The notes under the pieces were generated by a model. The model was given only the letters and a program-made list of their open reading frames with translations, was not told where the DNA came from and did no database searches. This document shows, piece by piece, positions 3,436-49,800 of a stretch of DNA of 64,000 nucleotides. Numbering within the stretch: position 1 is the stretch's first letter; every line of letters starts with the position of its first letter. Source of the stretch: Chrysoperla carnea (Eukaryota > Arthropoda > Insecta > Neuroptera > Chrysopidae); the NCBI RefSeq assembly GCF_905475395.1, contig NC_058338.1, positions 95,341,435 to 95,405,434 on the forward strand, written 5' to 3'. Position numbers and translations under genes: made by a program.

Positions 3436-4401
3436 TTATTTAGTATGAATACGTTTATGACCAATTACAGAAATTTTATGTCGAAATGTTTTATTACAAA
3501 TATTACATGAAAATGGTTTTTCTCCGGTGTGAATTCGTTTATGTGAAACTAGCGAACCTTTCTGAGCAAATGTTTTATTGCAAATATTACATGAAAATGA
3601 TTTTTCTCCACTATGAATTCGTTTGTGTGAAACTAAATTACCTAGCAGACTAAATGCTTTATTACATATATTACATGAAAATGGTTTTTCTCCGGTGTGA
3701 ATTCGTTTATGTAAAACTAAGTTATAATGCTGAGTAAATGCTTTATTACAAACATCACATGCAAATAGTTTTTCTCCGTTATGAATTCGTTTATGTCGAA
3801 CTAAATCACTTTTCTGAGTAAATATTTTAAAACAAACACGACATGAAAATTGTTCTTCTCTACTGTGTATTCGTTTATGTCGAACTAAGTTATAATACCG
3901 AGTACATGTTTTATTACAAATATCACATAAAAATGATTTTTTTTCATAATTATCTTGTATTTTTTCATAATTTGTTTCATCTTTAATTATGAGCTCTGTA
4001 TTTAATTGTTTTTCAAGCTTAATATTTTCGTAGTTAATTAAAGTAGTTGAATTTTTCTCATTTTCATGAATGTATTCGGTGCTATTTTCCAGTTTTTCAT
4101 TTTTAGTTGGTATACATTCCAATGAATAACAATCGTTTAGAACTTCATTCTTAATTCTGCCGCCAGGTTCCATTATAAAACTATGTTCCAGGCCTTCTTC
4201 AATGTGTCCACTTTCCATGTTGACATCGATGTCTTCTAATATTTCCTCTTTTATTATAAATTCTGTATTTAATTGTTTTTCCATTTTAATATTATTTTCA
4301 CAGTTGATTGTAATTGAATTTTTATCATTTTCATGAATGAGTTCAGGTTTCTTATCACTACTGGTATCTGGGTTTTCATATGTAATGCGTACACGGTCCA
4401 T
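3436..4401 (-). CDS. Six-finger C2H2 zinc-finger protein, single exon
   Basis: 321 residues from the first in-frame ATG (4401); the frame is open slightly further upstream but without another ATG before an in-frame TAA. Residues 157-319 hold six classical C2H2 fingers (Cx2C-x12-Hx3H) with TGEKP-type linkers (variants HSREEQF, HNGEKLF, HSGEKSF), so a nuclear DNA-binding transcription factor is expected. The first 150 residues are acidic, low in complexity and contain an internal duplication: residues 22-52 and 111-142 share IHEN(D/E)KNS, EKQLNTE and IIK(E/D)E. IKEE, IKNE and IKDE match the psi-K-x-E SUMO-acceptor consensus, which is common in repressive zinc-finger proteins. No ZAD or BTB domain is present. 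An AATAAA overlaps the stop codon (3435-3440). Insect C2H2 families expand quickly, so no orthologue is assigned. Confidence 0.85.
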   Translation of the reverse strand: MDRVRITYENPDTSSDKKPELIHENDKNSITINCENNIKMEKQLNTEFIIKEEILEDIDVNMESGHIEEGLEHSFIMEPGGRIKNEVLNDCYSLECIPTKNEKLENSTEYIHENEKNSTTLINYENIKLEKQLNTELIIKDETNYEKIQDNYEKKSFLCDICNKTCTRYYNLVRHKRIHSREEQFSCRVCFKIFTQKSDLVRHKRIHNGEKLFACDVCNKAFTQHYNLVLHKRIHTGEKPFSCNICNKAFSLLGNLVSHKRIHSGEKSFSCNICNKTFAQKGSLVSHKRIHTGEKPFSCNICNKTFRHKISVIGHKRIHTK

Positions 4402-4596
4402 TACAATTTGTTTCACTGTCTTCTCGAAATTGATTATTTAAAGTAAATTTTATTGCAAGGTTAAATATTAAATAAATTTTTGATTATATAATATATTTTT
4501 AACAATTTATGTAAACATGTTATAACCTAAAAGTTATTTCAATGATTTGAATGATTTTAAGGTTGATGATCCTGATGACTATATTATAATAAAGGG

Positions 4597-26504: not shown

Positions 26505-27065
26505 ATACATAAGAGGGGTATTTCAAATAGGTCCGTAGCACCTAGACCAAGAAGTCTTTGTGCCCTTCTTAAGAACAACCTATCACCTGGAGGTGACACG
26601 TCCCGAGTAAGAGATGCTATTTTAAGTAGATGAAGTCTGTGGTGGTCATATGCCACTAAGAAAGTTCACAGCTTTGGATGTTTCACCGACCTCCATGCAG
26701 ACCTTACAAGTGGGATCATCAGAGATCTCCATGTTATGAAGATGGTAGTTCAATCGACTGTCCTGTCAAGAGTCCCACCACCCTTTTCAACTGTGCTCAA
26801 GTGTGTTTCAGGCGATCACAGTCGATTGGTCTAGCTGTCGTTATGCACAGTTTGGCCTGCCGAACACATTGCGTAAAGTCCCAATAATCAGTATGGTCTT
26901 GTCGTAGCCATCCCTTGATTCGGTAAATTACGTAGCATTTTGGTAAAAGGAGTGTTTGAGACGACCCTTCGCGTGCCAACAAGTCTGCTGCTTCATTCCC
27001 TTTACCGCCAGAGTGGCCTGAAACCCAGGTCAGTTTGATTGTGTTATTCAGTGCAAAGGTTTTAG
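26505..27065 (-). pseudogene. Non-LTR retrotransposon fragment (RNase H end)
   Basis: Minus-strand frames read TWVSGHSGGKGNEAADLLA and REGSSQT (RNase H C-terminal motif). Later comes HNMEISDDPTCKVCMEVGE, a Cys-rich tail, then a frame ending in RLLGLGATDLFEIP. Related to 10440-10960 and better preserved, but split between frames. No target duplication found. Confidence 0.75.
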
Positions 27066-27069
27066 AAAG

Positions 27070-28285
27070 TTGCAATTTTAAGAAAATGGTTTGCCTCCAT
27101 TTTCGATAAAAATGATAAATATTTATTAAAAATAAAATTGCCAAGTCAACATATTTATGGCGGGAATTTTTAATTTAAAAAAAACAACAAATAGCACAAT
27201 ATTACTTCTGATTCTGAAGAAAATTTGCTGGGGGGTAGTGGTCAGTGGATGTTGAATTTTATATTTAACTTATAAAAATATTAAGTACGTATGACAATTT
27301 TTTAATTTATTTTTACTCAAAATCAAAGAGAATAGGATAGAGAAGACTTCAAAAGGATATTACAGTCAAAACAAAATCGGTTATAACGACACTGGAGATA
27401 CCCAGATCCTTCTTTAACCTTTTGGGGTTCCTGAGCACTATAAGTCTATCGTCACGCCATTGTTGACATACAGAAAAGAAGCAGATACGCTTTTTGGAAC
27501 GACAAGTGGCGAGAGTGCTGAGTGGAGCCTGGAAGTTTCCACAATCATGGTTTTGGGATAACTTTAATTCCAATCGGAACGGCATTTTAATTGTTAAAAT
27601 TTTTCCGCGCAAATTGTGAAACATTCAAATATTGCGTTAATTTTGGGATAGCGAAATTTTCAAATTCGTCATAATAATCGATTACTCATTATATGTCGTT
27701 CTGCACGATTTTGATTGTACTTTTCAGCTCTCTTCGAAGTAGAAGTGAGAAAAATAAAGCACCTAAATGTGTCACTGTCTTACGGTCTAAAAAAACCTTT
27801 GATTTATTTCCTGATCAATATACTCTCTCTAACCTGTACTCTTTGATTCAAAATATAATAATTTTGTTGTCACAATTTTTTATTATATTTTTGTTGTGTG
27901 TTTTTCTTTTTTTGAAGGGTTCCTTAATAAAATGTTAAATAAAAAAGGAACCTTTGTTTTGAATTTATTCTCTATTCACATTTTATTTTGAAAATGTAGA
28001 AATGAAAATTGAAAAAAACAAAAAAAAAAAACTAAACAATTATTTGAAATGAAAAAATTTCTGGATAAAATGTAATATTGAGGCGTTTGAAAAAACAAAA
28101 AATTTGTACGTTTCAATAAAAAAAAAACTTTTATTATTATTTTCTTCTTTTTTTTTTTAATAAAATGAAAAGCTGCGTCATAAACCAAAGTGAAAAAATT
28201 GCTGAGTGTTTTATTTCTTTCACTAGATGTATAACCGATGAAAAATCAACGGAATCTACTTTTTTTTTTATGAAAAACGAAAAGT
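27070..28285. other. Intergenic, low complexity, no gene recognised
   Basis: Contains long A and T runs (for example 28020-28160). Short frames here lack any domain or codon signal. Confidence 0.35.
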
Positions 28286-30109: not shown

Positions 30110-31840
30110 AATAATATTTAGAAAGCGCATCTGTCTGTCTGAAGTATTTTTAAACTGGAAGTATTTTACTATTTTAAAACTGCTTCAAAATATCGATTGC
30201 AATTCAATTTGATAAAACATTTTTAGCGTCAGAAAATGATACCATCGTTAATTAATTAAAGCTTAAATATTTTCAGCTTTATCGCTGATTTTTATCTAGA
30301 CAGCTCTTTGATCGAAATTATACCATGTGAACAAATTTGGCGCTAGAAGCTAGCGTCAAACGTCACAATGAAATCGCACCTTGAGAAAAACGTAAAATTA
30401 AGTTTCAGTGAATTTCCATAATGGCGCTCTTGAGAAGCAGGACTTAGGCTACTTCTCTATTCTTTTCTAGCCCCTGGTGGAAAAAATATTTGAAAAAATA
30501 ATAAGTCTTAACAAGTCTTAGGAAACTCTGAAACAGTCTTAGAAACTTTTAAAAAGTATTAAGAACTCTGAATAACTCTGTATTAGACTAGTCCGAAAAC
30601 GTTGAGAAATTCAAAGTTCCTAAGATTTTTTCAGAACTTCTTATTCTTTCTTCAAATATTTTTTCCATCAGGGGTACAACTTGTTGATATCTTTATTTGA
30701 CTTTTGTTTCTTTGTGTTTGATGTGAACTTCTTTATCCTTCTCTATCAACTTGTTTAGATTTTTATCTTATTCTTATTACTTTCTTTTAAAACTTAAAAT
30801 GTATTCCAGTTAGGTCACATAAACAGTCTTTAGCTTTTTACGATTTGACGCTGCCGAAGTTTTTTCCCATCCAGATGGCAGCACGGCCTAAACTGACCTT
30901 TTATCACAGAAAAGTAAGTATATCCTATTTTTATAATCAGGATTAATTTTGAAAGTATTGGATAAATAAATTTATAATATGTATTTTTTTATGAATTAAT
31001 AAACTTTTTTGTTTTCTGTCGCTTTTACATGATGTTGGACAAAGTTCTATTTTTTCAGCTAGGTGAATTCCTAATTTGACGACAAAAAGCCAATATCAAG
31101 CGTTATCATGATGGTACATTTTTTTAATTTGACGCTGCACATAGTTTTATTTTTTTCAGCTAGGTGAAATCCTAATTTGTCGCTCAAAGCCAGCGTCAAG
31201 CGTCATCAGGAAATTACATCTTTAGGTTTAGAACCATCTTTTAGAGATGGTTCTCACTCTGGTGTCAAATCCAGTTAGTATATTTTCGAAGTGTTTATTA
31301 GCGTCAGTGTAAAATAACATATCTATGATTATTGTAAAGGATACGGTAGGCTACAAAGAGGCAGGGAGGGATTTCAAAGAAACTGGAATTCATAGATATC
31401 TAGTATATTAGATGCCTATGTTGGAATTATTATATTTTATCTACGGCCGCTTGTAAAGGATTTTAGGAATACTTTTTTCAAAAATAAATCAATGAACAAA
31501 TATTTAATGCATGCGTGTTTTAAATAAAATTTTTATTCATTATATAGACGTACTTTCATAATACAATAATAATTTTAAATTAATTTTACAATTATCAATA
31601 TATAATATATTTTTTTAAATATATAGAATTAATTTTTAATTTATTTATATATTTTTTTTTTACATAATTAATGAGGTTTGATTAAATATTATTATATCTT
31701 AATTAATTAATATTGGGAGATAATGCAATATTTTTTTTAATTTTATTTTTTTTTTTTTATAATTATTTCATTTATTAGGTTAAAATATATAGATTTATTT
31801 AATTTATTTAGGTTAGATTCGTGCTTTATTAAAAACTACA
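30110..31840. other. 3-prime flank of the MIP gene, no gene seen
   Basis: A block GCTAGGTGAAxTCCTAATTTG followed by GCC(A)xxGTCAAGCGTCATCA occurs twice (about 31058-31110 and 31160-31215), an old direct repeat. The far distal part is AT-rich and probably 3-prime UTR of the distal MIP isoform, with an AATAAA (minus) at 31825-31830. Confidence 0.4.
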
Positions 31841-31845
31841 ATTCT

Positions 31846-31895
31846 TTAACCCCACATTCCTTTTAAGTTGTTCCAACCTGGATCTCGTTTTGATA
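31846..31895 (-). CDS. Mip: MIP distal alternative last exon: DPGWNNLKGMW-amide
   Basis: After acceptor TTTTCCAG the frame (completing a G-TA valine codon) reads VSKRDPGWNNLKGMWG then TAA. KR is the cleavage site, the two Trp are six residues apart, and the final Gly gives the amide. The peptide matches Drosophila MIP EPTWNNLKGMW-amide closely. An AATAAA lies 16 bases after the stop, which seems too near to be the working signal. Confidence 0.9.
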
Positions 31896-34800
31896 CTGGA
31901 AAAGAAAGTACAGATATTAATAAAGTATTCAAATAGAAAGTAACAAGATCTAAAAGGGACAATTTTTACGATTTTTATTAAGCTATTTTTAATGACCTGA
32001 GATTAAAGTGGTTCGGTTGTCACGTGGCTAGTTTACTAGTTAACTAGGCAATTTGTATGACGTTAATGTAAGAAAATGCTCTAAAAATATCGTAAACCAG
32101 GGAATTTGTATGACGTAAATGTAAAAAAATGCTCTAAAAATATCGAAATAGCGTTTAAACCAAAGTTCTATTATGTCTTCTTTTAGGCAAACGCCGTAAG
32201 GTAATGTTTTTTTTTGAATAAACAAAATCTGTGATACATTTTCTTCATGATGAAACCATTTTTGAATTTCGCATTTACCAATAGGACTTTTCATTTTAAA
32301 ATCACGATTCACATTTGTTTCGTACTAAATGATTTATAACCAATGTGATAAAATGAATAACAAATATCTTCTATCTTAGTCCTACTTATTGCTGTCAGTA
32401 CGAAAAAATAAACTCTGCACTTGCGCTTATGACATGATGAAAAGGCCTATTAATTTTTGTAAAATGAACATTATTGTAAGTTTTTAAATTAAGTACTGTG
32501 TTAAAAATCATAATTTTAAAATGAAATTTTGAAAAATTTTGCCCCGCAAGAGGCCCCAAAACTGTGTTTATTGTGATCAAGGAACTTTGAACTATCATTT
32601 ACCGCAAACAAATGAACATACACCGTACTGTCTCAAACAGCCGGACTACTTTAAAAGTAGTTTTAAACAAAATTGTGTAAAAAGGTAGTCAACGATATAA
32701 AATTAAAAAACAAATCTAGAACCATTAACCGTTTCTGTTAGCTGTTAACAAATTACTTTTTGTCAAATATTTAGTCTAATCCAGATGTGAATTGTATAAG
32801 CGGCAACGTTGTACTATTTAATTCTGTGAGACTGTGCTGCTTGATATACTGTGTGCACAGATGAGCAAAATATGAGAGTATGAGTTGTAGCGTTGACACA
32901 TTTACCGCATTAATACAACTACTATTTAGAGAAATGTATTTTCTTTTATCTAAGATATCACATTCTCACTCACTCCGATTGAAATACGTTAACATCACTT
33001 TTAGATTGATGTCTGTGTGTTTGCATGTATGTTCGTTTGTTCTCGTGAATGAAAAGTGATTTCGCATTTACGCTAATCGGAATATAATATATAATAATAA
33101 GCGAAAATTTTGTTAATTATTAAAATTTGAGAAAATCAAACAATATTTATGCGCTGATAATTTTTCCTATAAAAATAATATTTACGAGAATATTAATAGC
33201 TTTCAAATATCTGTGATGTAATCGTTTTTATCGACTAAATTTATTTAACTAAACATGTAAATATTTTTTTTGAATACAATCTATGTTTTTATCTTTATAA
33301 ACGATGGGCTTAAAATACCGTTATAAATGGGAGAAGAGGGGGTGAGATCTATTTCTCTTAAAAAATGAGCACTGAAATTCATTTCATGAAAGTTTTTATT
33401 GTATAAAAACTTGCAGTATGCTTACATGAAGCTTTGACTAAAGGCTTTATCGGCTACAAGTAATTATGGTGCAGTAAAAGATATAACAAAAATCAACTAA
33501 TAAAACAAAATGAAATAAACCGCTCATTTTATGCCAAAACCTAGTCAAATTGGTTTCTCAGGTGTAAATTATTCGTAAACCATGAGTTAGTTTCTATTTG
33601 TTAATAAACAATAAACTGTTAATTAAATGATATAGTTCATATACAAGCTGACTTAAGAAAATTAATAAATAGGCAACTTGTATTATGTATATGTTATGTA
33701 CATATATGAGTTTTTCGAACATGAAAAAAAACAATCTTATACATGTATAATATATATATAATATAACTATAGCGGTTTCGAGAATGCCGTAAAAATATCG
33801 TAATTATTCGGCATTTACGTAATGCCGTATATTTACCGTTATAATTTTTTTATATTATAATATTTTGGCCAGTTTTTATACTATAGTTATCTAATATATA
33901 TACTGCACTTACGCGGTATAGTTAAACACATTTCACCAGGCTTTAGCAAAATGAGCGGGGTTTATTTAATTTTCTTTTATTCAGTTACATCTTTGACTGT
34001 ACTATTAGTTTTTATTAAATTTTACATACAAATCGTACACATATAAATCGCAAGCGTAAAACTTCCCATTAATATTTAAAGCCTTATGTGCATTAAAGCC
34101 TTACCATTCTTACTAATTAAGCACGTATTAACGCACGAGTGTGAAAATTTTGCCAATAAAGTTTTTCCTTGGATATTAAGTGAGTTCTCCGATCTCTCCT
34201 CTCATCGTAATTTTTGTTCAATAACTTCAAGTAGTTTGAAATTGACTGAAATTTGATTGGTTCCATTTATATGATAAAATGAAAACATTCGAATAGTTTT
34301 CGAATAAGCTATCTCTGGTTGAAAATATTTTACACTCGTGCGCTGATAGGTTCTAATAATAGTTATATGACAAACCTTAAAAATTAAAATCATTACCTTT
34401 TTTTACATCGAAAAAGTTTCTGAAAATATAAATCGAATAAATAATGAATTTAGGGGTGGGGAAGTTCAAAACTAAATAAGTATCGATAAATAAAATGTCC
34501 AAACATGGAGACTAGAGAAGGAGACCGAACTCAAGCGGGAGAATTGACAAAAGTCATTGCAATCGTGTAAGTTACTTAGTTACTTTTTGTACCACTAGTG
34601 TCGCTAATTTCCTTTTGCACTGAAGTGAATATAGCATAATAATAATCCAATTAATCTGCGAAACAGATGACAAAATTGCTATTAGAAAACAAAAAATATG
34701 TTGTCATAGAAGAAAACAAGCCAAGAAACATTGCGTTTTTTGTTTACGGCTAAGTTAACCTAGAAAATTCCCAAAAATAAAAAAAATGGTTTTCTTGCGA

Positions 34801-37800
34801 TAAAAATAAAGTTGACGTCCAATGCATAAAAATTAAATGGGAAAGTTATAGGTCTCAAAAAAACCTGTCGATTGCCGTCTGGTAAGTAATTTGGATGCGT
34901 AGATACCGAGAAAACTTAAAAGAAATGAGCGAAAATAGTCGTTTTTAAATTTGTTTATAATTTTTTCTTTTTTTCATTTTATAGTTGATATTTGGTGAAG
35001 TTATGAGTAATAGGTTCCACAAACCCCCAGTTTTTTTTTTTTTTTTTTTAATTTTGAAAATTTTTCGAAATATCGCTTTTTTTACGAAAATAAAAAACAT
35101 TCCTGTTGGTCGAGGGATTATGGTAGAGCGGTTTTTCGAAGCTTAATCTCTTTATCTAGACTTTTTCTAACATAATTTTTTCTTCAGCAAGTGAATTTTG
35201 TATTTTTTTTCATGACGAAATCGGGCCTCAAAAAATTATAATTTTTTTGGATGGAGTTTTTCTCGGTAAAAAGTAAAACTCGTAGAGCTCTGAAACTTGC
35301 ACACGTTGTTAATAAATTCTTTTTTTACATTTAAAAAAATATTTGCAATTGTTATTTTTCGTGGAACGACCGCATTGATTCCGTCAAAGTCGAGTGTTTA
35401 TGCATCCCATTTTTTTTTGAGGCCCGAATTTGGCATCAAAAATTTCTCTTTCTGCTAAAATATTATGTTAGAAGTCTAGGCGAAGAGATTAAGCCTCGAA
35501 AATTTGCATCTACCATAATCAGTCGACCAAGGGAAAAGTTTAAGATCAAAATTTTTTGATTAAAACACTGAAGGTTTTTGAACCTATTACTCTTTAACTT
35601 TTAACTTTAACCAAATATCAACTTTAAAATGGAAAAAGAAAAAAGTTATAAATAAATTTAAAAACGACTATTTTCGCTCATTTTTTCAAATCTTAGCATC
35701 TACGCATCCAAATCGGACTTACCAGACGTCAATTGATAAGGTTTTTTTTTTTTTTTTTTTTGAGATCAATAACTTGCCCATTTAATTTTTTTGCATTGGA
35801 CGTCAACTTTTATCGCAAGAAAAAATTTTTATTGCAAAGAAGACCAATTTTTTTGACTTTTGCGAATTTTTTAGGTTAAGTTAGGCATTTATTAGCCGTA
35901 AACAAAAAAGCTATGTTTCTTTTCAAGTTTTCTTCTATAACATCATATTCTTTGTTTTCTGATAGCAATTTTGTCAAATTTAACATTTGGCCTCCGTAGA
36001 TTAATTGGATTATAAATAGGAGTGAAGTAAGCAAAATAACCAATTTATTCTTCAAGTGAATACATATATATACGAACTACTACATATTTCGCGCCTTACA
36101 CTCCCTCCACTATTACGGTACAAAAGGAACACTACTGACATCTTATTTGTGACTGCCATTTATTTACATGGAGTTCGGTCTCCTTCTCTAGCCTTCATGG
36201 GTCCAATGGTCCAACAATAATCATATATTTTATTCATAAAACGCACATTTTACAGAATATACTTTTTATATAATACTTACAAGGACATGTTTTTATTTTA
36301 TTTAGGAAAACAACTCTCGTATAACACGAAAAATTTTCATGGCATAAATATAAAATATTATGTCACGAATAAATATGTCTTTGGAAGTTTGGAATATAAT
36401 TCGTCGTAAAAGTTTTTACTTAAATCGAAAAAAAACAAAATAAATAAATAATTGTATTGTCATTAGCCGCAATTCGTGTTATATGCGATTGTTAACATTT
36501 TGTGTTTTTGTTTCTAAATAAATAATATTAACTTAACCCCACATATACTTTAAATTGTTCCAGCTGGATTTCTTGGGTGCTGTAAAAAAAAGAGGAATCG
36601 CTCGTTTACATATCATGCAAAATGCAAATATTTATATTAATAAATAGCATTCAATTTTTATTTGGGAATACTATATCCTACATGTTGGGTTGCCACATTA
36701 AGTAGGTATTCTGGTCTAGAATCTTCAATTGTAGGCATTTTCCAAACTAACATTACAAAAAAATGAAAATCATTTTTGTAGCCATTTTATCATATGATAT
36801 TTATAAACATTTTTAAAATATAATAAGAATAGTAAAAAAAATTAATTCTACGAATTACAGGCTGGTGAAGTGAGACGTACGAGTCCAGCCCTTGTAGAGA
36901 TCCGAAACAAAAAATTTTGGAAAAATTGTTAATTAGTAAAGATGTTGCTATCGTCTGTACCTCAGCCAAAATAAAAAAAATTTTTAACAAAAAGAAAATC
37001 GACTTCAAAAAAAAACTTTTCGAAAACAAATTAATATGCACTAAAAATGGAAAAAATAACGATAATAAAATGTGGTTAAAATGTTATTCTTGGGGTCGGT
37101 GTCAGCCAAGGAAACAACTCTGACAGAACAGTTTGCTACATTAGCTTGGCTGACACCGACTCCAAAAATAACAATAATTTTAATTACATTATATTATCGT
37201 TATTTTTTACTTTTTAGTGCATGTTAATTTGTTTTCGAAAAGTTTTCTTTTGTAGTCGGTTTTCTTTTTGTTTGTTTTTTTTATTTTCTGATTTTTTAGT
37301 GAAACAGAAGTACACTAACTAACTTGTCATTAAAAAAAGAATCATCCAAATCAGTTGGATTGATATTGAGTTATTCGCCCTCTTATCGTACATACTTAAT
37401 GCAAATTTAAGACTTTTATGGTTTTCTCATGGATGTCGTTGTCAGAACTGAACCAAAATGAAATGGGACCACACGGGAAGCACCAGCTTTCAAATAGATC
37501 TTCAAAATTGGTTTACTCAGTCAAAAGTTCTGAGGTAACACACATAAAAAAAAAATTAAAATACAATCGAATTGATAACCCCCTCCTTTTTTTTGAAGTC
37601 GGTAAATAAATTATTTCACAAAATGGCGTCGAAATGAAAAAAAAATTGTTTTTGCATTTTTTAAAAATAATCAAAATTGAAATTTTTTTAAATCCAACGT
37701 TCATACGATAGAGAGATTTATAAAGAAGATTCCAACCAATTTTCGGAAGGAATCTTTCAAAGGAATCGGTCGAGTAGAATTTGAGATATCATGTCAACCA

Positions 37801-40800
37801 CCTCGAAAAATACGGTTTCAAGGAAAACGCGTTTTAAGTTTGAGAGACAATTCTGGCAGAGTAACTCGAATAAAAATATTACTCACTTTGGATTAATTGG
37901 AGATCCCAGAATTATACATTGGGTCTTCTTCTACTTCATAAGCAATGTCTTGCAAAGTTATTTCTGCTAACCGAGCTGTTTTGCCTTCTTTTGAAGCAGC
38001 AGAAACTCACATTACAGAGCGATCAATTCGCACTTCGTTAAAGAAAATCCGGCGTATCACCGAAAATAATTCGAATTTGGAACAATTCGTTTAAGGACAT
38101 ATTCTTACAGGTCTAACCTTTATAAATATGCAAAAAAATAGATTTATTCAAATTTCTAGACCAGAATACTGCCTTAAGGTATCGTTTTTCTTCTAAGGTA
38201 TCTCCAGACAACGTCAAGTTAGCAAGACATTCTTAATATTCAAAATTCATTTGGGCATGAACAGGAACAAGGCAATTTCTAGTAATAATTTCGCCATTTT
38301 CCGTCATTTCAATTTCGACATATTACTCTTCTTGGTATAATGCACTGCTTTGTTCCCGTACATTTGCGAGTTTACGGACCTTAATACAATCAGAATTTAC
38401 TCTAAGCCAATCAAAATTTATATATAGCATCATGCTTGGACTAAATTAAATGCTTGCTAGTAGCCGGGGGGAATAAATTCTTACCTGTGATCGCCTCAAG
38501 ATTCTAGAGACATTTTTTATAAATCCTTTAGCAAAAATTAAGTATCATAACTCACCAAATTTGGTGAATAATTGGAAAAAGACTAATGGTTTAATATACA
38601 AAAAAAAAAACAGCTTATAAACAAGGATAGAAAAATGTAAGACATATTACCTGGTCCTTTGTTTCCGTCATTGGGCAATTGATTTGCTTGAACTTCATCA
38701 ATTTGGTTGTTACGTTTTCCCCATCCAGCCTAAAAATAAAATCCAGATATATTATTTTGGTACTGGTTGTAGCGTTGACAAATTTACTATCAGCTATTTA
38801 CAAGGGCGTCGCCAGCCGATAGCAGAGAAGGGCCGTAAATTAAAATATAGGAGAAAACGCGAAAGTTTTTATAATTTAACAAGTGAAAACAAACAATTGA
38901 CTGAATTAATTTTTGAAATACCATGCATAGTCAGTGTTGATTTCTTTATCACATTACACATACATACATGTGACACATACATAACTGATATTCAAGTATG
39001 GTACTTACTATAAAATTTCCGCCTAATTGGCGCCCTCACGGGTAAACAGTGATGTTTACGAAAAAATGTTTCAAGCAAAAGTTGTTTATTTTTTGATAAG
39101 GAACATTTTTTACATTTAAACTTTTGTTCTATCTCTAACGGTTTACAAGATGGGTCCTACAGACCCAAGACCCAATTGACCTATGATGCTCATTTACGAA
39201 CCTGACCTCACTTTTTACGTCCTGAGTACGCTGTAAAAATTTCAGCTCGAGATCGACGGACGGACGGACGGACAACCGGAAATGGACTAATTAGGTTATT
39301 CTATGAACACCTATAGCAAAATTTTGTGCGTGGCATCAATATTTTTAAGCTTTACAAACTTGGGACTAAACTTAATATATCTTGCATATTACATATATGC
39401 ATGGTATAAAAATAAAACCTAATTTACCATTAATTTACCTGAAAACATTCATGGAACTAGAGCTAAATTTTGGGGGATCACAAGGGTTTGTGATGGTGAA
39501 AACCGTGGACTTTTTGTGTGTTTTGTGTGTTTTGTGAGCTAAAAATTTCTTTTTCTACTATTCCTTTCTTCCCCCAACCATCGTATTTTAATAAAAGGCG
39601 CCCTTTTCCTAAAAACTTGTTGTCAAAAATGATTTTATTTAGTTTTTGTACGCTATATATCAAATTTATCAGAATATATTAAGTTTAATCCCAAGTTTAT
39701 AACGCTTAGATATGGATGCTATAAACAAAATTTTGATTTAGTTATTCATAAAATTAAATTAATTAGTCCATTTCCGTTTGTTTGTCCGTTAACACGATAA
39801 CTCGAAAGCGAAAAGAGATATCGAGCTGTTTTTTTTTGTATCGTGTTTCGGACCCAAAAAGTGAATTTGAGTTCGTAAATTTTCAACATAGGTCCATTGG
39901 GTCTTGTAAACCGCAAGACGCAGAATAAAAGTTTAAATGTAAAATTGTTTAATATAAAAAAGTAAACAACTTTTGGTTGAAACTTTTTTTTGCAAATAAC
40001 TTTGTTTTCCCGTGAGAGTCTAAATTAGGGCAAAATATTTGTTATCTCTTTCTCAAAAACTATAAAAGACGATTAGTTGAAAATTGTAAGGTAGCTTGAT
40101 TGATTCTAATTTCATACTAAACTCATCCAATAACGGAAGTTTTGAATTCAGTAGAATTTTACTCTTTTAAAGCAAGTGCTTTGAATCATTTTTGTGAATC
40201 TCTGCCCCTACCTGCTCCCCTTGGCGACGTCCATGACTATTTAGGTGAGTAATACAACTACAATTTAGAAAACTATATTTCTTCTCTTTCAAAAATATCG
40301 CGTTTCTAAGATATGTCGTTAGAAATAAGAGAAAAAAACCTTAATTAACAATAGGGTACTTTCGGTATTGAAAAATAAATTATGAAATTTAATGAAAATT
40401 AAAATTGATGTAGAAATATACTTAAACTAGAGTGATACCCACTCGCTTCGCTGGGTTTAAAAGTAAAGATTGATAAAGATTGCTCTCGCTTATTCCGTTT
40501 CTATAAACCTCGAAATAATGGTAAGGATTGTTTAACACAGGTAAAATGTATGTATGATTTTCTATTAATCTAATAGTCGTAAATATTCATTGAGTATATC
40601 AGAAAAGATGGCCGTGAAATATTTTATATTGACTATTTTTACAGAAATCTGTAATTTACGGTAATGTTAAATGACTACTTTTACAGAAATCTGTAATTTA
40701 TGGTAATATCAAATTAAATTAATTTTTAAATTTTATTTTTTATTTTTTATTAATAAATTTTTATAAATTATATCTACTATATTATGTGTTATTCTAAAGT

Positions 40801-43800: not shown

Positions 43801-46800
43801 AATAATAAATTAATGTCGCAGTGTAGAGAAATGTTTTTCTATTTTTATTAATTTAGACGAATGTTTTTAACTCGATATAAATCAAAATTATTTAATTTAA
43901 ATGATTTCCGTAAAATCTTTATCAATTTCCAAAATAAAATAGTGATCAATTCTTCGATCATACGGAAGAAATAGTTAAGAATTAATATTACTGAACAATT
44001 TTTAAACTCTTTTTGTGAAAGAAATATATCGTAGGTACACTTTTTAAAGTACTGTAAAATACCTTGAAAATAAAAAAAGTTACAAGTCATTTGCATGAAA
44101 ATTAATGGAGTTATAATGAAAAGAAAGTTTCTCGTACCTTTTTATTCAGCACAAAAACTAATGAATTTACCACGGGAATTAAAATTAATGCTTGTCGCTT
44201 TCCAATTTACGTTATTTAGTACTGACAACGTGCACAAAAAGTTTTGGATATATATTTTTTGAAATATTGGAATTAAAATGCAAAACAAATTTTTTGAAAA
44301 AAACAAAAATTTTTCTTTATCGTTAAATTACTCGAAAAATAATAACGTTACAAAAAAAGTTAAGAGGGCAAAAATTTTGCTGTTTTTCCGCAGAATATTT
44401 TCTTTTCTTTTTCGAGTTATTTAAAGATAAAAATATGTTTTTTTTTTTCGAAAATTTTTTTTGCATTTAAATTGATAAATAAAGTAAATTTTCAAGCGGC
44501 AAGCAATAATTTTAGTTCCCGTAGTAAATTCAGTTTTTGTGCTGAATAAAAAGAAAGGAACGAGCAATTTTCTTTTCATTATAACTGTGTTAATTTTCGC
44601 GCAAATGCCTTGAAACTTTTTTCTTTTTCCAGGCTTTTGTAGTACTTAAAAAGTGTGCGATGTACGTTTTTCAAAAAACGACGAAATTTTTCAGTTATTT
44701 AAGATTAAATACTCCGAATTTCAATCGCCAATAACCCGGAAAGTATCGAGTCATTTAAGTATTTTCGAAATATACTTAAATGACACTTTTTGCATACAGT
44801 TTATCACTATATCGATTTCTGTTGCCATTTTCAACATTTGTCCATGCCATGTCCAGGGGTGTTTACCATCGCCTAGGCGTAATATTGGTATTATCAACAG
44901 TCATTACTTCAAAATATTTCGAAGCACTAATTCATTCTTTCCATAGCGTAGCAACTCGTACCATAATACCTTGGTCTCCTTTTCTGCGTTTTTGATATTT
45001 ATGTCATTAAAAAAATTTGCTATTTGTTTCAAAAATTCATTACAATTATTGCTTTTTTTATTGCACATTTGGTAATTTTTTTGCAAACAAAATCATTTTA
45101 ATGTGTTATATTGATATTAGTAATTTTTATACCATGTATATATGAAATATACATAGTGTATTAAGTTTAGTCCCAAGTTTGTAACGCTTAAAAATAATGA
45201 TGCTAGGAAAAAAATTTTGTCATAGGTGTCACTAAATCACCTAATTAGTCCATTTCCGGTTGTCCGTCCGTCCGTCCGTCTGTGGACACGATAACTCAAA
45301 AACGAAAAAAGATATCGAGCTGAAATTTTTACAGCGTACTCAGGACGTAAAAAGTGAGGTCAAGTTCGTAAATGAGCATCATAGGTCAATTGGGTCTTGA
45401 GTCCGTAGGACCCATCTTGTAAACCGTTAGAGATAGAAAAATAGTTTAAATGTAAAAAATGTTCCTTACCAAAAATTAAACAACTTTTGTTTGAAAATTT
45501 TTTTCGTAAACATCACTGTTTACCCGTGAGGGCGCCAATTAGGCGGAAATTTTATAATATGTACTATACTTGATTATCAGTTATGTATGTGTCACATGTT
45601 CGTATGTGTAATGTGATAAAGAAATCAACACTGACTATGCATGGTGTTTCAACAATTAACTCAGTCAATTGTTTGTTTTCACTTGTTCTTTTATTTGATT
45701 ATGTCAAAAAATCCTCTAGCACACTTGTCACTGTATCAATGCTTTTGCCGTCATCAGTTTTTACCCTCTTTTTATCATGTCGTTAGCGGTTATTATTTTC
45801 ATTTTAATAAATAAATACGTACAAACGAAATGCACTGACGAAAGTACACAGATAAATTTGACAGATATTTACCCAGCTGAACAGACAGTTAATGCCATAA
45901 AATATTATACATAGAGAACGCCATTGCCCAAAATTTGCGATATGATGAATGAGAGAAGAAGAATGTCAGTTAGTTTCTATGTGTCCTTGTCTAATCTATA
46001 TGTCATTGGCTAGATATTGTTTACATTACACAAAATATCTATAAATCATATGATTATCACATATGACTATGACAAGGACACATAGGAACTAACTGGCAAT
46101 CTTCACTCTCATTCTTCATATCGCATCCACTTTTAGGCCAGCATAGCCCTCGCGTTATCTATATATAATATATAATATCTATAGTTAATGCCGATATGAC
46201 ATCACATCAGGGCTCGCTTCTGTTTTAGGTCATATGATATACAGTTTAAAAATTACGTTTTTTAATTTTAATAAAATTAAACAATTATATGCTTTTATGA
46301 CTCAAACTCAGAATATTTAAGTATATTTCTACATAAATTTTAATTTTTTTCTAATTTCATAATTTATTTTTCACTACAGTAAGTACCCTATTGGGAGCAA
46401 CTAACTGCTTTACTGACACTCAAACATTAAATTAAGATAGGTTTCAGTAGATGGCGTTGTTCCACGATTAGTATGTAGGGAGTTTTTTGGACAAAATGTC
46501 GATCTAGCTGGGTTTCATTTTGAGAAAACGTCGTTCTCTCTCGGAAACGTCTCCAACGATTTTCATGACATTTAGTATGCAGGAGATTTCGGGGCGAAAA
46601 ATGAAACCTAGGCTAGGTTTTATTTAAAATAAATAACGAGCAAAGCTCGGTCATCCAGGTACTAACTATTAAATAAAGAAACAAATATATTTACTTGTAA
46701 ATTTTTCCATGCACGCTTCTCCAAATCAGCCCGACCACCCGGTACAACAACGATAAAATACGGTAATGGAGCACCCGGTTGTCCAACAGCACCATTCTGC

Positions 46801-49800
46801 TGTAACGATGATAATATTGATAATATTTTAGTTGAATCAGCAGGTCCAACACCAACAGCACGTTTACCCCAACCACCACTATGTAATTGATCCCAACCTC
46901 TTTTACCCCAACCCCCTTGTAATTTGTCCCATGCCCGTTTTGTATAATAATGGTCTTCAATCTGATCTGGTGTACCATCTTCATTCATTTCATCCATGTC
47001 ATCTTCCTGTAAAAAACAATTATTACAATTATTATAGTAATTAATAATTAATATTCTTTTTTTTAAATTATCTTTTTTTTAAATCGTATATAGGGTGTAT
47101 CGTAATGAACGAACGTAACCAGGCAATAGTCATTATTTACATCTATACATTTTTCATGCTAAATGTAGGGGAAAGTATTATAAAATGATCCCTCGTTTTT
47201 TTATGTGAACTATTGATGGGACGAATGTTGAATTTTGTATATTCGCGAATGCGAATGCGAATGTTAACTTTCAAATGAAGCGCTCACAAATTCTAATGTA
47301 TTAACTTAATTAATTATTATAAATTATTTCTCCTGCATGCTTTTTTCTGTCCATATCTAATCTTCCGAAAAATATACTCACGGACTAAAATTGTACCGCT
47401 TAGGAAAAAACAGGTTAGACAAATAAATAATAAATAATTTTAACGAAAAAATATTTTAAATGAGTTGAATAATAAGTGTATCAGGCAAACATGATTCGAA
47501 TGTAACAGTTTTAACAACTGTAAAGATATTTAAAATGAAACTATTTTTAAAATATGTTCTCTTAATATTAATTTCATAACTTTTTATTTTTTTCACTTCT
47601 AGTAAGTTTGTTGTTGTTTTTTAGTTACGAGTACAGGATAGCCATGAGTTACGGTAGCCATGGAAGCGGAATTCCACACGGGTCGAGCTAGTATATATAA
47701 TTCTTCACTAACGTAAAAGAGTCCGCCGTATAAGTCTATTCAAAGCAAACCATTTAAAGCAAAACAGTCCATTTAAAGCAAAATTCAGTTTTTTTTATTT
47801 TAAATTGAGGATAGTTTACTATAATTGCATTTGTCCAAAATTCAAATTTAACAGCGATTAAAAAATTTGAGTAAAGTACATATGAGTGAATTTTGGGGTT
47901 ATTTTGCAATTTATGATACAAAAAAAAAAAAACTTTTAACAAAATGAAAACCAACTTCAATAGAAAAACTTTTCCAAAACAAAGTAATATGCACTAAAAA
48001 GTAAAAAAATAACGATAATATAATGTAGTTAAAATTATTGTTAGTTTTGCAGTCGGTGTCAGCCAAAGAAATAACTCTAACAGAACAGTTTGCAACATTA
48101 GCTTGGCTAACACCGACTCCAAAAATAACAATAATTTTAACTACATTATATTATCGTTATTTTTCTTACATTTTAGTGCATATTAATTTGTTTTGGAAAA
48201 GTTCTTCTTTTGAAGTCGGTTTTCTTTTTGTTAAAAGTTTTTTTATTTTTATTTTGTGATTTTTAGTGAATCTGAAATACACTTGTTTGTCACTAAATAA
48301 AGAATCATCGAAATCGGTTTACCCAGTCGAAAGAACTGAGGTAACACACATAAAAAAAATACAACCGAATTGAGAACCTCCTCCTTTTTTGTTTGAAGTC
48401 GGTTAAAAATGATGATGATTTTGTGTCAAATTGTTGCCATACAATCGTCATTTGAAAACAATAACTTTGATCAAATTGACGAAATATCTTTTTACAAATT
48501 CGAAATTTATTGTTTTAAAACAAATAGGGCAATTATTTTTGAAAACTACAATTTTTTATCTAGGTTTTTGTATTTTTTGGGTCAAAGTTAGTTTAGAAAA
48601 TGTTTCAAAAAAATCAGAAACAAAAAACTTTGATTGATATTTTTGAATACATTTTTTGCAGTTTTTAAAACCATTTCGAGTGATTATTTTGAAAACTATG
48701 GTTCTGATCAATTTTTTAACAACATTTTTCTTTTCCTTGGGTCAAAATTAGTCTAAAAAGTGATTTTTGTCAAGATGGGAAACTAAAAACATTTCTCGAA
48801 TTTTTGAATTTTTTTAAGGGGTTTTGAGTTTTTTTACCTCTTTTGTTTCCGGTTTTGATAAAAATAATCTTCTAAACTAATTTTGACCCAAGGAAAACAA
48901 GATTCTAGCTAAAAAATTCATCAGAGGCAAATGGATTCGAAAATGTCGAACAAAGTTCTTTACCAGAATTATAGTTAAAAAAAATTGTTTTCACTGATTG
49001 AAAAACAGTTATTTCGGACTTGATGTATCAGTCCGATTTCGGATTTCAACCAAAAAAGAAAAACAGATGACGTTAGTGCATCAATTTCTTAAAAATATTC
49101 GAAATTTGTCACTCAAATTATATTTGCAGTAAAGCTAATGCAACTACAGAGATTTTTTTGGAAGCGGGATAATGGCGCACCCTTATTTCTACCGTTGAAT
49201 TTCGTAATCTATCACCATATGGGCCTTAAATTATGAAGAATCCTTATCTCATAATATCAAATTTCCATTTTTTTCTGGAAATATTATAAAAATGTTTTTT
49301 TTTACAAATTTCAAAACTTTGTCTCTAGAAAAGGAAACTTTTCCGACTATAAGTGTATTTAAAAATTATCCTTTTTTTTTAACGTTATGTACCCTTTTAT
49401 TGACATCGTGTTGTTATCACTTAGGTCATTCTGTATAAAGATACATAAATTATCCTGTCTGTTGTAGATAATAGCATATGTAACATTTAAAAATTGAATT
49501 CAATTTATTTAAAGCTATCTATTATTCTAGAATTACTAGAAAAATAACAGAAGAGACTAGACGAGAGATAAAATAAAAAAATGTAATCATAAAATAAATG
49601 TAATAATTATATATGAAATCGATTTTAAAATACATTATTTTAAATAAAAAAGCAAACGAAAACAAACAATTGACTGAGTTAATTGTTGAAATACCACCGT
49701 ATAGGAAGTGTTGTCAAATGTCAAACAAAGCCCATAGCGGCCTTAGTCTAGAAAGTATTTTCTAGAATTTTTTATCGTTTTTTGAGAATTTTCCACAAGA

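What the first reader, a model, noticed from the sequence alone, without database searches (positions are those of the whole stretch)
31846..36579. Two alternative last exons give the MIP prohormone different final peptides
The sequence shows two exons 4.6 kb apart, both in phase with exon 38651-38729. Each encodes a basic cleavage site, a W(X6)W peptide, an amidation glycine and a stop: KK-SSWNNLKYMWG (36533-36579) and KR-DPGWNNLKGMWG (31846-31895). Since each ends the frame, a transcript can carry only one. The exons look like an old duplication, WNNLK-x-MWG being kept. Established knowledge: MIPs act as C-terminal amides on one receptor, and Drosophila EPTWNNLKGMW-amide matches the distal form. 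Inference: alternative 3-prime end choice switches the peptide between tissues or stages.
Basis: partly seen in the sequence, partly recalled or inferred. Interest (0 to 1): 0.85.

Follow-up and report, generated by a model that had tools for sequence, protein, structure and literature searches.

The report
Lacewing MIP gene's two alternative endings
In what appears to be the green lacewing genome, the gene for the insect signalling peptides called MIPs has two related last coding pieces, each ending the protein with a different peptide; the sequence is real and looks preserved, but it has not been shown here that both are used.

Summary
On the minus strand, MIP exon 38729-38651 ends in phase 1. 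Two exons (36579-36533 and 31895-31846) follow it in frame. Each has a strong acceptor, a dibasic site, a W-X6-W core, an amidation Gly and a stop. Only these two sites in the 559-Mb genome match a degenerate core pattern. The cores are 25/30 nt identical, while their flanks are close to random pairs: an old exon duplication with the core kept. The assembly matches Chrysoperla carnea inChrCarn1.1, chromosome 2, by scaffold count and chromosome length. Best reading: alternative last coding exons giving DPGWNNLKGMW-amide or SSWNNLKYMW-amide. The architecture is published for termite CNMa, locust myosuppressin and beetle DH37/DH47. [quoted passage not shown] A tissue or stage switch is untested: no transcript, peptide or related-species data were available. 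The signal-peptide exon was not found in about 177 kb upstream. New member of a known kind; moderate interest.

The parts
46695..47006 (-). MIP exon A, phase 0 in and out: EDDMDEMNEDGTPDQIEDHYYTKR AWDKLQGGW-G-KR GWDQLHSGGW-G-KR ... EKR AWKNLQ|
   Evidence: one match in the genome
38651..38729 (-). MIP exon B, shared: completes AWKNLQ|AGW-G-KR, then spacer NNQIDEVQANQLPNDGNKGP; donor gtaata, phase 1
36533..36579 (-). Proximal last coding exon: (A)PKK SSWNNLKYMW-G-stop
31846..31895 (-). Distal last coding exon: (V)SKR DPGWNNLKGMW-G-stop
36297..36532 (-). Candidate 3-prime UTR of the proximal exon, with a U-rich stretch (best 50-mer has 29 T; 1.1% of 50-mers on this strand reach that) and AATAAA at 36302 and 36297; a donor-like GTAAGT follows at 36280
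   Evidence: AATAAA is common here (2.7 per kb), so weak
31747..31845 (-). Candidate 3-prime UTR of the distal exon, AATAAA at 31830 (16 nt after the stop) and several more
   Evidence: weak for the same reason
34504..36199 (.). 1.7-kb fold-back repeat element lying between the two alternative exons
   Evidence: nested inverted arms; member of a dispersed family (49 matches including itself; 634 first-look candidates, 40 scored); predicted MFE -668 kcal/mol against -317 to -407 for 4 random segments of equal length

Best explanation
This is the MIP (allatostatin-B) gene of a lacewing whose last coding exon was duplicated long ago. The shared exons give three MIPs (AWDKLQGGW-, GWDQLHSGGW-, AWKNLQAGW-amide). 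Exon B is then joined to one of two last coding exons of the same phase, so each precursor ends in either SSWNNLKYMW-amide (proximal, after KK) or DPGWNNLKGMW-amide (distal, after KR). Shown: exons, phases, acceptors, processing motifs, uniqueness in the genome, a similar core with flanks that do not align. Inferred: that both are spliced and secreted, that the distal form is the older one (it keeps the Drosophila MIP4 core), and that the proximal exon is either used as an early 3-prime end or passed over in favour of the distal one. Regulation by tissue or stage is a guess.
For: Exact anatomy and frames. Zero such features in 2782 simulations. Only two matches to the core pattern in 559 Mb, both perfect. 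Core 25/30 nt identical, reached by 2e-5 of 200,000 random 30-mer pairs; the upstream flanks score 26 against a 95th percentile of 30 for 284 random pairs of window segments. The core's only amino-acid change is G to Y; two further codons differ at the third base only (by eye). Both acceptors are among the strongest on the strand by the simple score used. Published precedents: termite CNMa, locust myosuppressin, beetle DH37/DH47.
Against: No RNA or peptide evidence. No related species was searched, so conservation is inferred only from the pair itself. The downstream flanks score 31, slightly above the 95th percentile of 30, perhaps from A/T-rich runs. The signal-peptide exon was not found in the window or 160 kb above it, so the full precursor is not reconstructed. 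KK is commonly a poorer cleavage site than KR (recalled).
Confidence: 0.75

Rival explanations
1. The proximal exon is a skippable cassette exon, not a separate 3-prime end: its UTR splices on to the distal exon, so all mRNAs share one 3-prime end, as in termite CNMa. The peptides differ in the same way, but regulation is by exon inclusion.
For: A GTAAGT donor-like site at 36280 lies just after the first AATAAA signals of the proximal exon; GTAAGT occurs 0.23 per kb on this strand. The termite CNMa mRNA that includes the stop-bearing exon carries both exons.
Against: The site has a poor exonic side (CTT|GTAAGT), and AATAAA signals precede it. It is one of three GTRAG words in the 2 kb examined (36280, 36099, 35722), so chance is not excluded.
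Confidence: 0.3
2. Only the distal exon is used; the proximal one is a relic or is spliced at negligible level.
For: The proximal copy is the one that departs from the Drosophila MIP4 core: Y instead of G, and KK in place of KR. No transcript evidence exists here.
Against: Flanks have lost nearly all similarity while the core, frame, dibasic site, amidation Gly, stop and a top-1% acceptor stayed intact. A relic of that age would be expected to have decayed.
Confidence: 0.12
3. Both exons are used, but in the same cells at a fixed ratio, without a regulated switch; the gene merely makes one more paracopy variant.
For: Simplest reading of a duplicated terminal exon. In locust myosuppressin and termite CNMa one form dominates in read counts (62 against 8; 931 against 75), and the passages read give no tissue data.
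Against: Nothing direct. A U-rich stretch in the proximal UTR and not in the distal one hints at regulation, but weakly: it is the best of many overlapping 50-mers, and the distal candidate UTR examined was shorter (99 against 236 nt).
Confidence: 0.45
4. KK is not cleaved, so the proximal form is one 34-residue amide NNQIDEVQANQLPNDGNKGPAPKKSSWNNLKYMW-NH2 rather than a decapeptide.
For: KK sites are less often used in insect precursors (recalled, not looked up). The distal copy has KR.
Against: The pea aphid paper calls a KK/RK-flanked peptide (PeaNPLP) flanked by typical cleavage sites, though it doubts that this precursor is secreted at all (PMC13302288 section 3.1).
Confidence: 0.2

Closest known systems
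Termite (Zootermopsis) CNMa gene, two CNMamides by alternative splicing (PMC4237046, CNMa section read)
   Same: Shared 5-prime exons; two successive exons each with a related amidated peptide; a stop in the first excludes translation of the second
   Different: Other peptide family; there the stop-bearing exon is a cassette, supported by transcriptome reads; here nothing is shown at RNA level
Locust myosuppressin gene (PMC4237046, passage)
   Same: Shared first coding exon joined to one of two alternative exons, each giving one related amide
   Different: One peptide per precursor; here three MIPs are common to both precursors and only the last differs
Beetle DH37/DH47 gene (PMC6585902, passages)
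   Same: Alternative last coding exons ascribed to exon duplication
   Different: CRF-like hormones; the same paper counts 7-8 allatostatin-B paracopies in the beetles studied and the passages seen report no alternative last exon for that gene
Pea aphid MIP gene (PMC13302288, passage)
   Different: Details are in a supplement that could not be opened; whether MIP itself is spliced, and whether at the last peptide, is unknown
Drosophila MIP4, EPTWNNLKGMW-amide (PMC4204809, passage)
   Same: Same core WNNLKGMW-amide as the distal peptide
   Different: Different N-terminus; I recall it lying inside a single-form precursor in the fly

Membership tests
Insect MIP / allatostatin-B precursor gene | Several W(X5-7)W-amide paracopies between dibasic sites | tested here: met
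   Five predicted peptides, each with a dibasic site before it and Gly after its last W; one is X7 (GWDQLHSGGW)
Insect MIP / allatostatin-B precursor gene | N-terminal signal peptide | tested here: inconclusive
   No convincing first coding exon in about 177 kb above exon A
Insect MIP / allatostatin-B precursor gene | Peptides activate the sex peptide/MIP receptor | not testable with these tools
   A candidate receptor exon exists at C2:14.62 Mb with no close second copy; Srw/rhodopsin-type by Pfam, identity as MIP receptor by recall only
Alternative last-coding-exon neuropeptide gene (CNMa / myosuppressin / DH37-47 kind) | Two exons of the same phase after one shared donor, each with its own acceptor and stop | tested here: met
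Alternative last-coding-exon neuropeptide gene (CNMa / myosuppressin / DH37-47 kind) | Exons are related by duplication | tested here: met
   30-nt core 83% identical; the only direct repeat listed with a copy in each exon
Alternative last-coding-exon neuropeptide gene (CNMa / myosuppressin / DH37-47 kind) | Each exon has its own polyadenylation site | tested here: inconclusive
   AATAAA near both, but the word is common on this AT-rich strand; a donor-like site at 36280 allows the cassette model
Alternative last-coding-exon neuropeptide gene (CNMa / myosuppressin / DH37-47 kind) | Transcripts of both forms exist | not testable with these tools
   No RNA data available

The most novel reading that the evidence does not exclude
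The duplicated terminal exon makes a regulated switch: one cell class (for example ELAV-positive neurons, through the U-rich stretch in the proximal UTR) skips the proximal end and makes the canonical WNNLKGMW-amide, while endocrine or glandular cells make WNNLKYMW-amide, so that a single MIP receptor sees ligands of different potency or lifetime. As far as the searches made here show, no such switch has been described for the MIP/sex-peptide-receptor pathway.
Probability: 0.15. Interest if true: 0.6.

Novelty: new member of a known kind. Interest (0 to 1): 0.4.

Why it matters
MIPs act through the sex peptide receptor and bear on sleep (PMC4204809, title and abstract in the listing) and mating receptivity in flies (a reference title seen); gut roles are recalled. 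If both forms are made, the lacewing gene is a natural experiment that changes one peptide of a cocktail while holding the others constant, which makes the question 'do MIP paracopies differ in function?' testable. It also adds MIP, a multi-peptide precursor, to the neuropeptide genes diversified by terminal-exon duplication.

Tried and rejected
Beetle and aphid origins were considered first, from GC content, a mitochondrial-like fragment and the look of the peptides. A search for the assembly's statistics listed 5 papers, none taken up. Chrysoperla carnea was then proposed from recall, and its genome note agreed: 337 scaffolds and chromosome 2 of 100.74 Mb, against 337 contigs and C2 of 100,744,152 bases here. 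The total span differs slightly (559.49 Mb held, 560.25 Mb in the paper), and no sequence-level check of the name was made.

Search for the signal-peptide exon: scans with several donor and hydrophobicity scores, in the window, to 60 kb above it and to 160 kb above it. Candidates 60142 and 51327 were read in sequence and 113291 in the listing only; none was accepted. Further terminal or cassette MIP exons: a W-X5-7-WG motif search of both strands of the window gave the three MIP copies of the exons above, the two terminal ones among five hits, plus two others judged spurious (one search lists six hits in all: 36562, 31875, 46931, 46895 and the two spurious ones at 37073 and 57908; AWKNLQ|AGW is split by an intron and so is not a hit). 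Chance as explanation: rejected. Recent tandem duplication: rejected, flanks do not align. Pfam on exon A: no family at E 0.001. Rfam on the window and 60 kb above: one tRNA. Six peptide strings from this gene in the paper library: 0 papers; WNNLKGMW in 3 papers, WNNLK with 'neuropeptide' in 3. PDB search with the candidate receptor exon: 8 distant matches, seven of them orexin receptors. Viral, metagenome and prokaryote collections were not searched for this gene.
Full report
WHAT IS THERE. The finding lies on the minus strand. Exon 38729-38651 begins in phase 0 with (A)GWGKR, completing a MIP whose first half, AWKNLQ, ends the upstream exon 47006-46695. It ends ...GNKGP plus one base (phase 1) at a gt donor. 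The proximal exon 36579-36533 and the distal exon 31895-31846 both continue that frame. Joined, the two precursor ends read ...NKGPAPKKSSWNNLKYMWG-stop and ...NKGPVSKRDPGWNNLKGMWG-stop; ending the upstream exons one or two bases short of the donor makes the proximal exon read as nonsense.

MORE THAN CHANCE. A scan for a splice acceptor followed, in this phase, by a dibasic site, W-X5-7-WG and a stop finds only these two exons in the window (the distal one also from a second acceptor at 31949) and none in 2782 simulated 64-kb sequences of the same dinucleotide content. A looser feature, any Gly-ended or Gly-dibasic stretch after a dibasic site, occurs 0.29 times per simulation. A degenerate DNA pattern for WNNLKxMWG, with up to two mismatches, hits the 559-Mb genome only at these two sites, both without mismatch. 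Both acceptors are among the best on the strand by pyrimidine content (top 0.75% and 1.4% of 1326 YAG sites).

AGE AND CONSTRAINT. The two exons share 25 of 30 bases over the core, a level reached by 2e-5 of 200,000 random 30-mer pairs of the window. The 300 bases upstream align no better than random pairs (26 against a mean of 22 and a 95th percentile of 30, 284 pairs); the 300 downstream are marginal (31), perhaps from A/T runs. In the repeat search of 30500-39500 the core is the only direct repeat listed with a copy in each exon. Within the core, one codon differs in amino acid (G to Y) and two differ only at a synonymous third base. The duplication is therefore old and the core appears to have been kept in both copies. 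This is inference from one genome: no relative was searched, since the collections offered here are prokaryote, viral, plasmid and metagenome ones.

WHOSE GENE. The assembly has 337 contigs and contig C2 is 100,744,152 bases. The genome note for Chrysoperla carnea gives 337 scaffolds, chromosome 2 of 100.74 Mb and chromosome 1 of 139.98 Mb (PMC10116181, part 1 of 2 of the text); total span differs slightly (560.25 Mb there, 559.49 Mb here). Exon A has one match in the genome. The gene gives three shared MIPs, AWDKLQGGW, GWDQLHSGGW and AWKNLQAGW, then one of the two WNNLK peptides. I could not find the exon with the signal peptide in the window or 160 kb above it, so the precursor's start is missing from this account.

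HOW IT PROBABLY WORKS. Exon B is joined either to the proximal or to the distal exon. Because each ends in a stop, the translated precursor ends in only one of the two amides. Two routes are open. In the first, the proximal exon is a real 3-prime end, with AATAAA at 36302/36297 and 36234 (the word is common here, 2.7 per kb). In the second, it is a cassette exon whose UTR splices from a GTAAGT at 36280 to the distal exon, as in the termite CNMa gene, where the mRNA including the stop-bearing exon carries both (PMC4237046, section on CNMa). The sequence does not decide. A U-rich stretch in the proximal UTR (29 T in its best 50-mer, a level reached by 1.1% of 50-mers on the strand) would suit an ELAV-type factor (recalled mechanism), but that is only an idea. 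A 1.7-kb fold-back repeat sits between the exons; any effect on splicing is unknown.

WHAT IS KNOWN. Related architectures are published for termite CNMa and locust myosuppressin and for beetle DH37/DH47, where exon duplication is proposed (PMC6585902, passages). The beetle paper counts 7-8 allatostatin-B copies; the passages seen mention no allatostatin-B splicing. Passages of four other papers name splice forms of other neuropeptide genes and not of MIP: tenebrionids (PMC9552230), a ladybird (PMC12194362), non-pterygote hexapods (PMC4770511) and a cockroach (PMC12604039). [quoted passage not shown] Six strings from these peptides occur in 0 papers of the library. So this gene's pair is probably undescribed in the open literature searched, but the kind is known. 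NCBI has annotated this genome and may already list isoforms.

RECEPTOR. A PF10324 search gives 7 matches. One exon, at C2:14.62 Mb, looks like the C-terminal part of the sex peptide/MIP receptor as I recall it, and its only other match in the genome is 33% identical. This fits one MIP receptor, but the name rests on recall.

VERDICT. Observation confirmed; interpretation right on anatomy and duplication, unproven on usage and on a tissue or stage switch.

Noticed in passing
L008 (G000:C1:138886126-138887466, minus): A full-length, uninterrupted 542-codon bacterial-type COX1 frame near the end of chromosome 1. It reads like a Rickettsiales gene (recall): either a gene transfer or symbiont sequence built into the scaffold.
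   Followed up: partly
window 34504-36199: Fold-back repeat element of about 1.7 kb with nested inverted arms, member of a dispersed family; the other listed matches are 74-91% identical to its left part.
   Followed up: partly
window 36973-37285: Second long hairpin (313 nt, arms 84-93% complementary, predicted MFE -146.5 kcal/mol) in the intron just before the proximal exon.
   Followed up: partly
window 46695-47006: Between its MIPs exon A carries a long non-MIP spacer (AVGVGPADSTKILSILSSLQQNGAVGQPGAPLPYFIVVVPGGRADLEKR); with four MIPs per precursor found so far, the count is lower than the 7-8 reported for beetles.
   Followed up: no
L009 (G000:C2:59569181-59569471, minus): Nuclear fragment resembling insect mitochondrial COX1 (insect character by recall).
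   Followed up: no
window 3436-4437, minus; 26797-27174, minus; 322-786, minus: A C2H2 zinc-finger frame, an RNase H fragment that suggests a transposon, and a cysteine-containing frame without a Pfam match.
   Followed up: no
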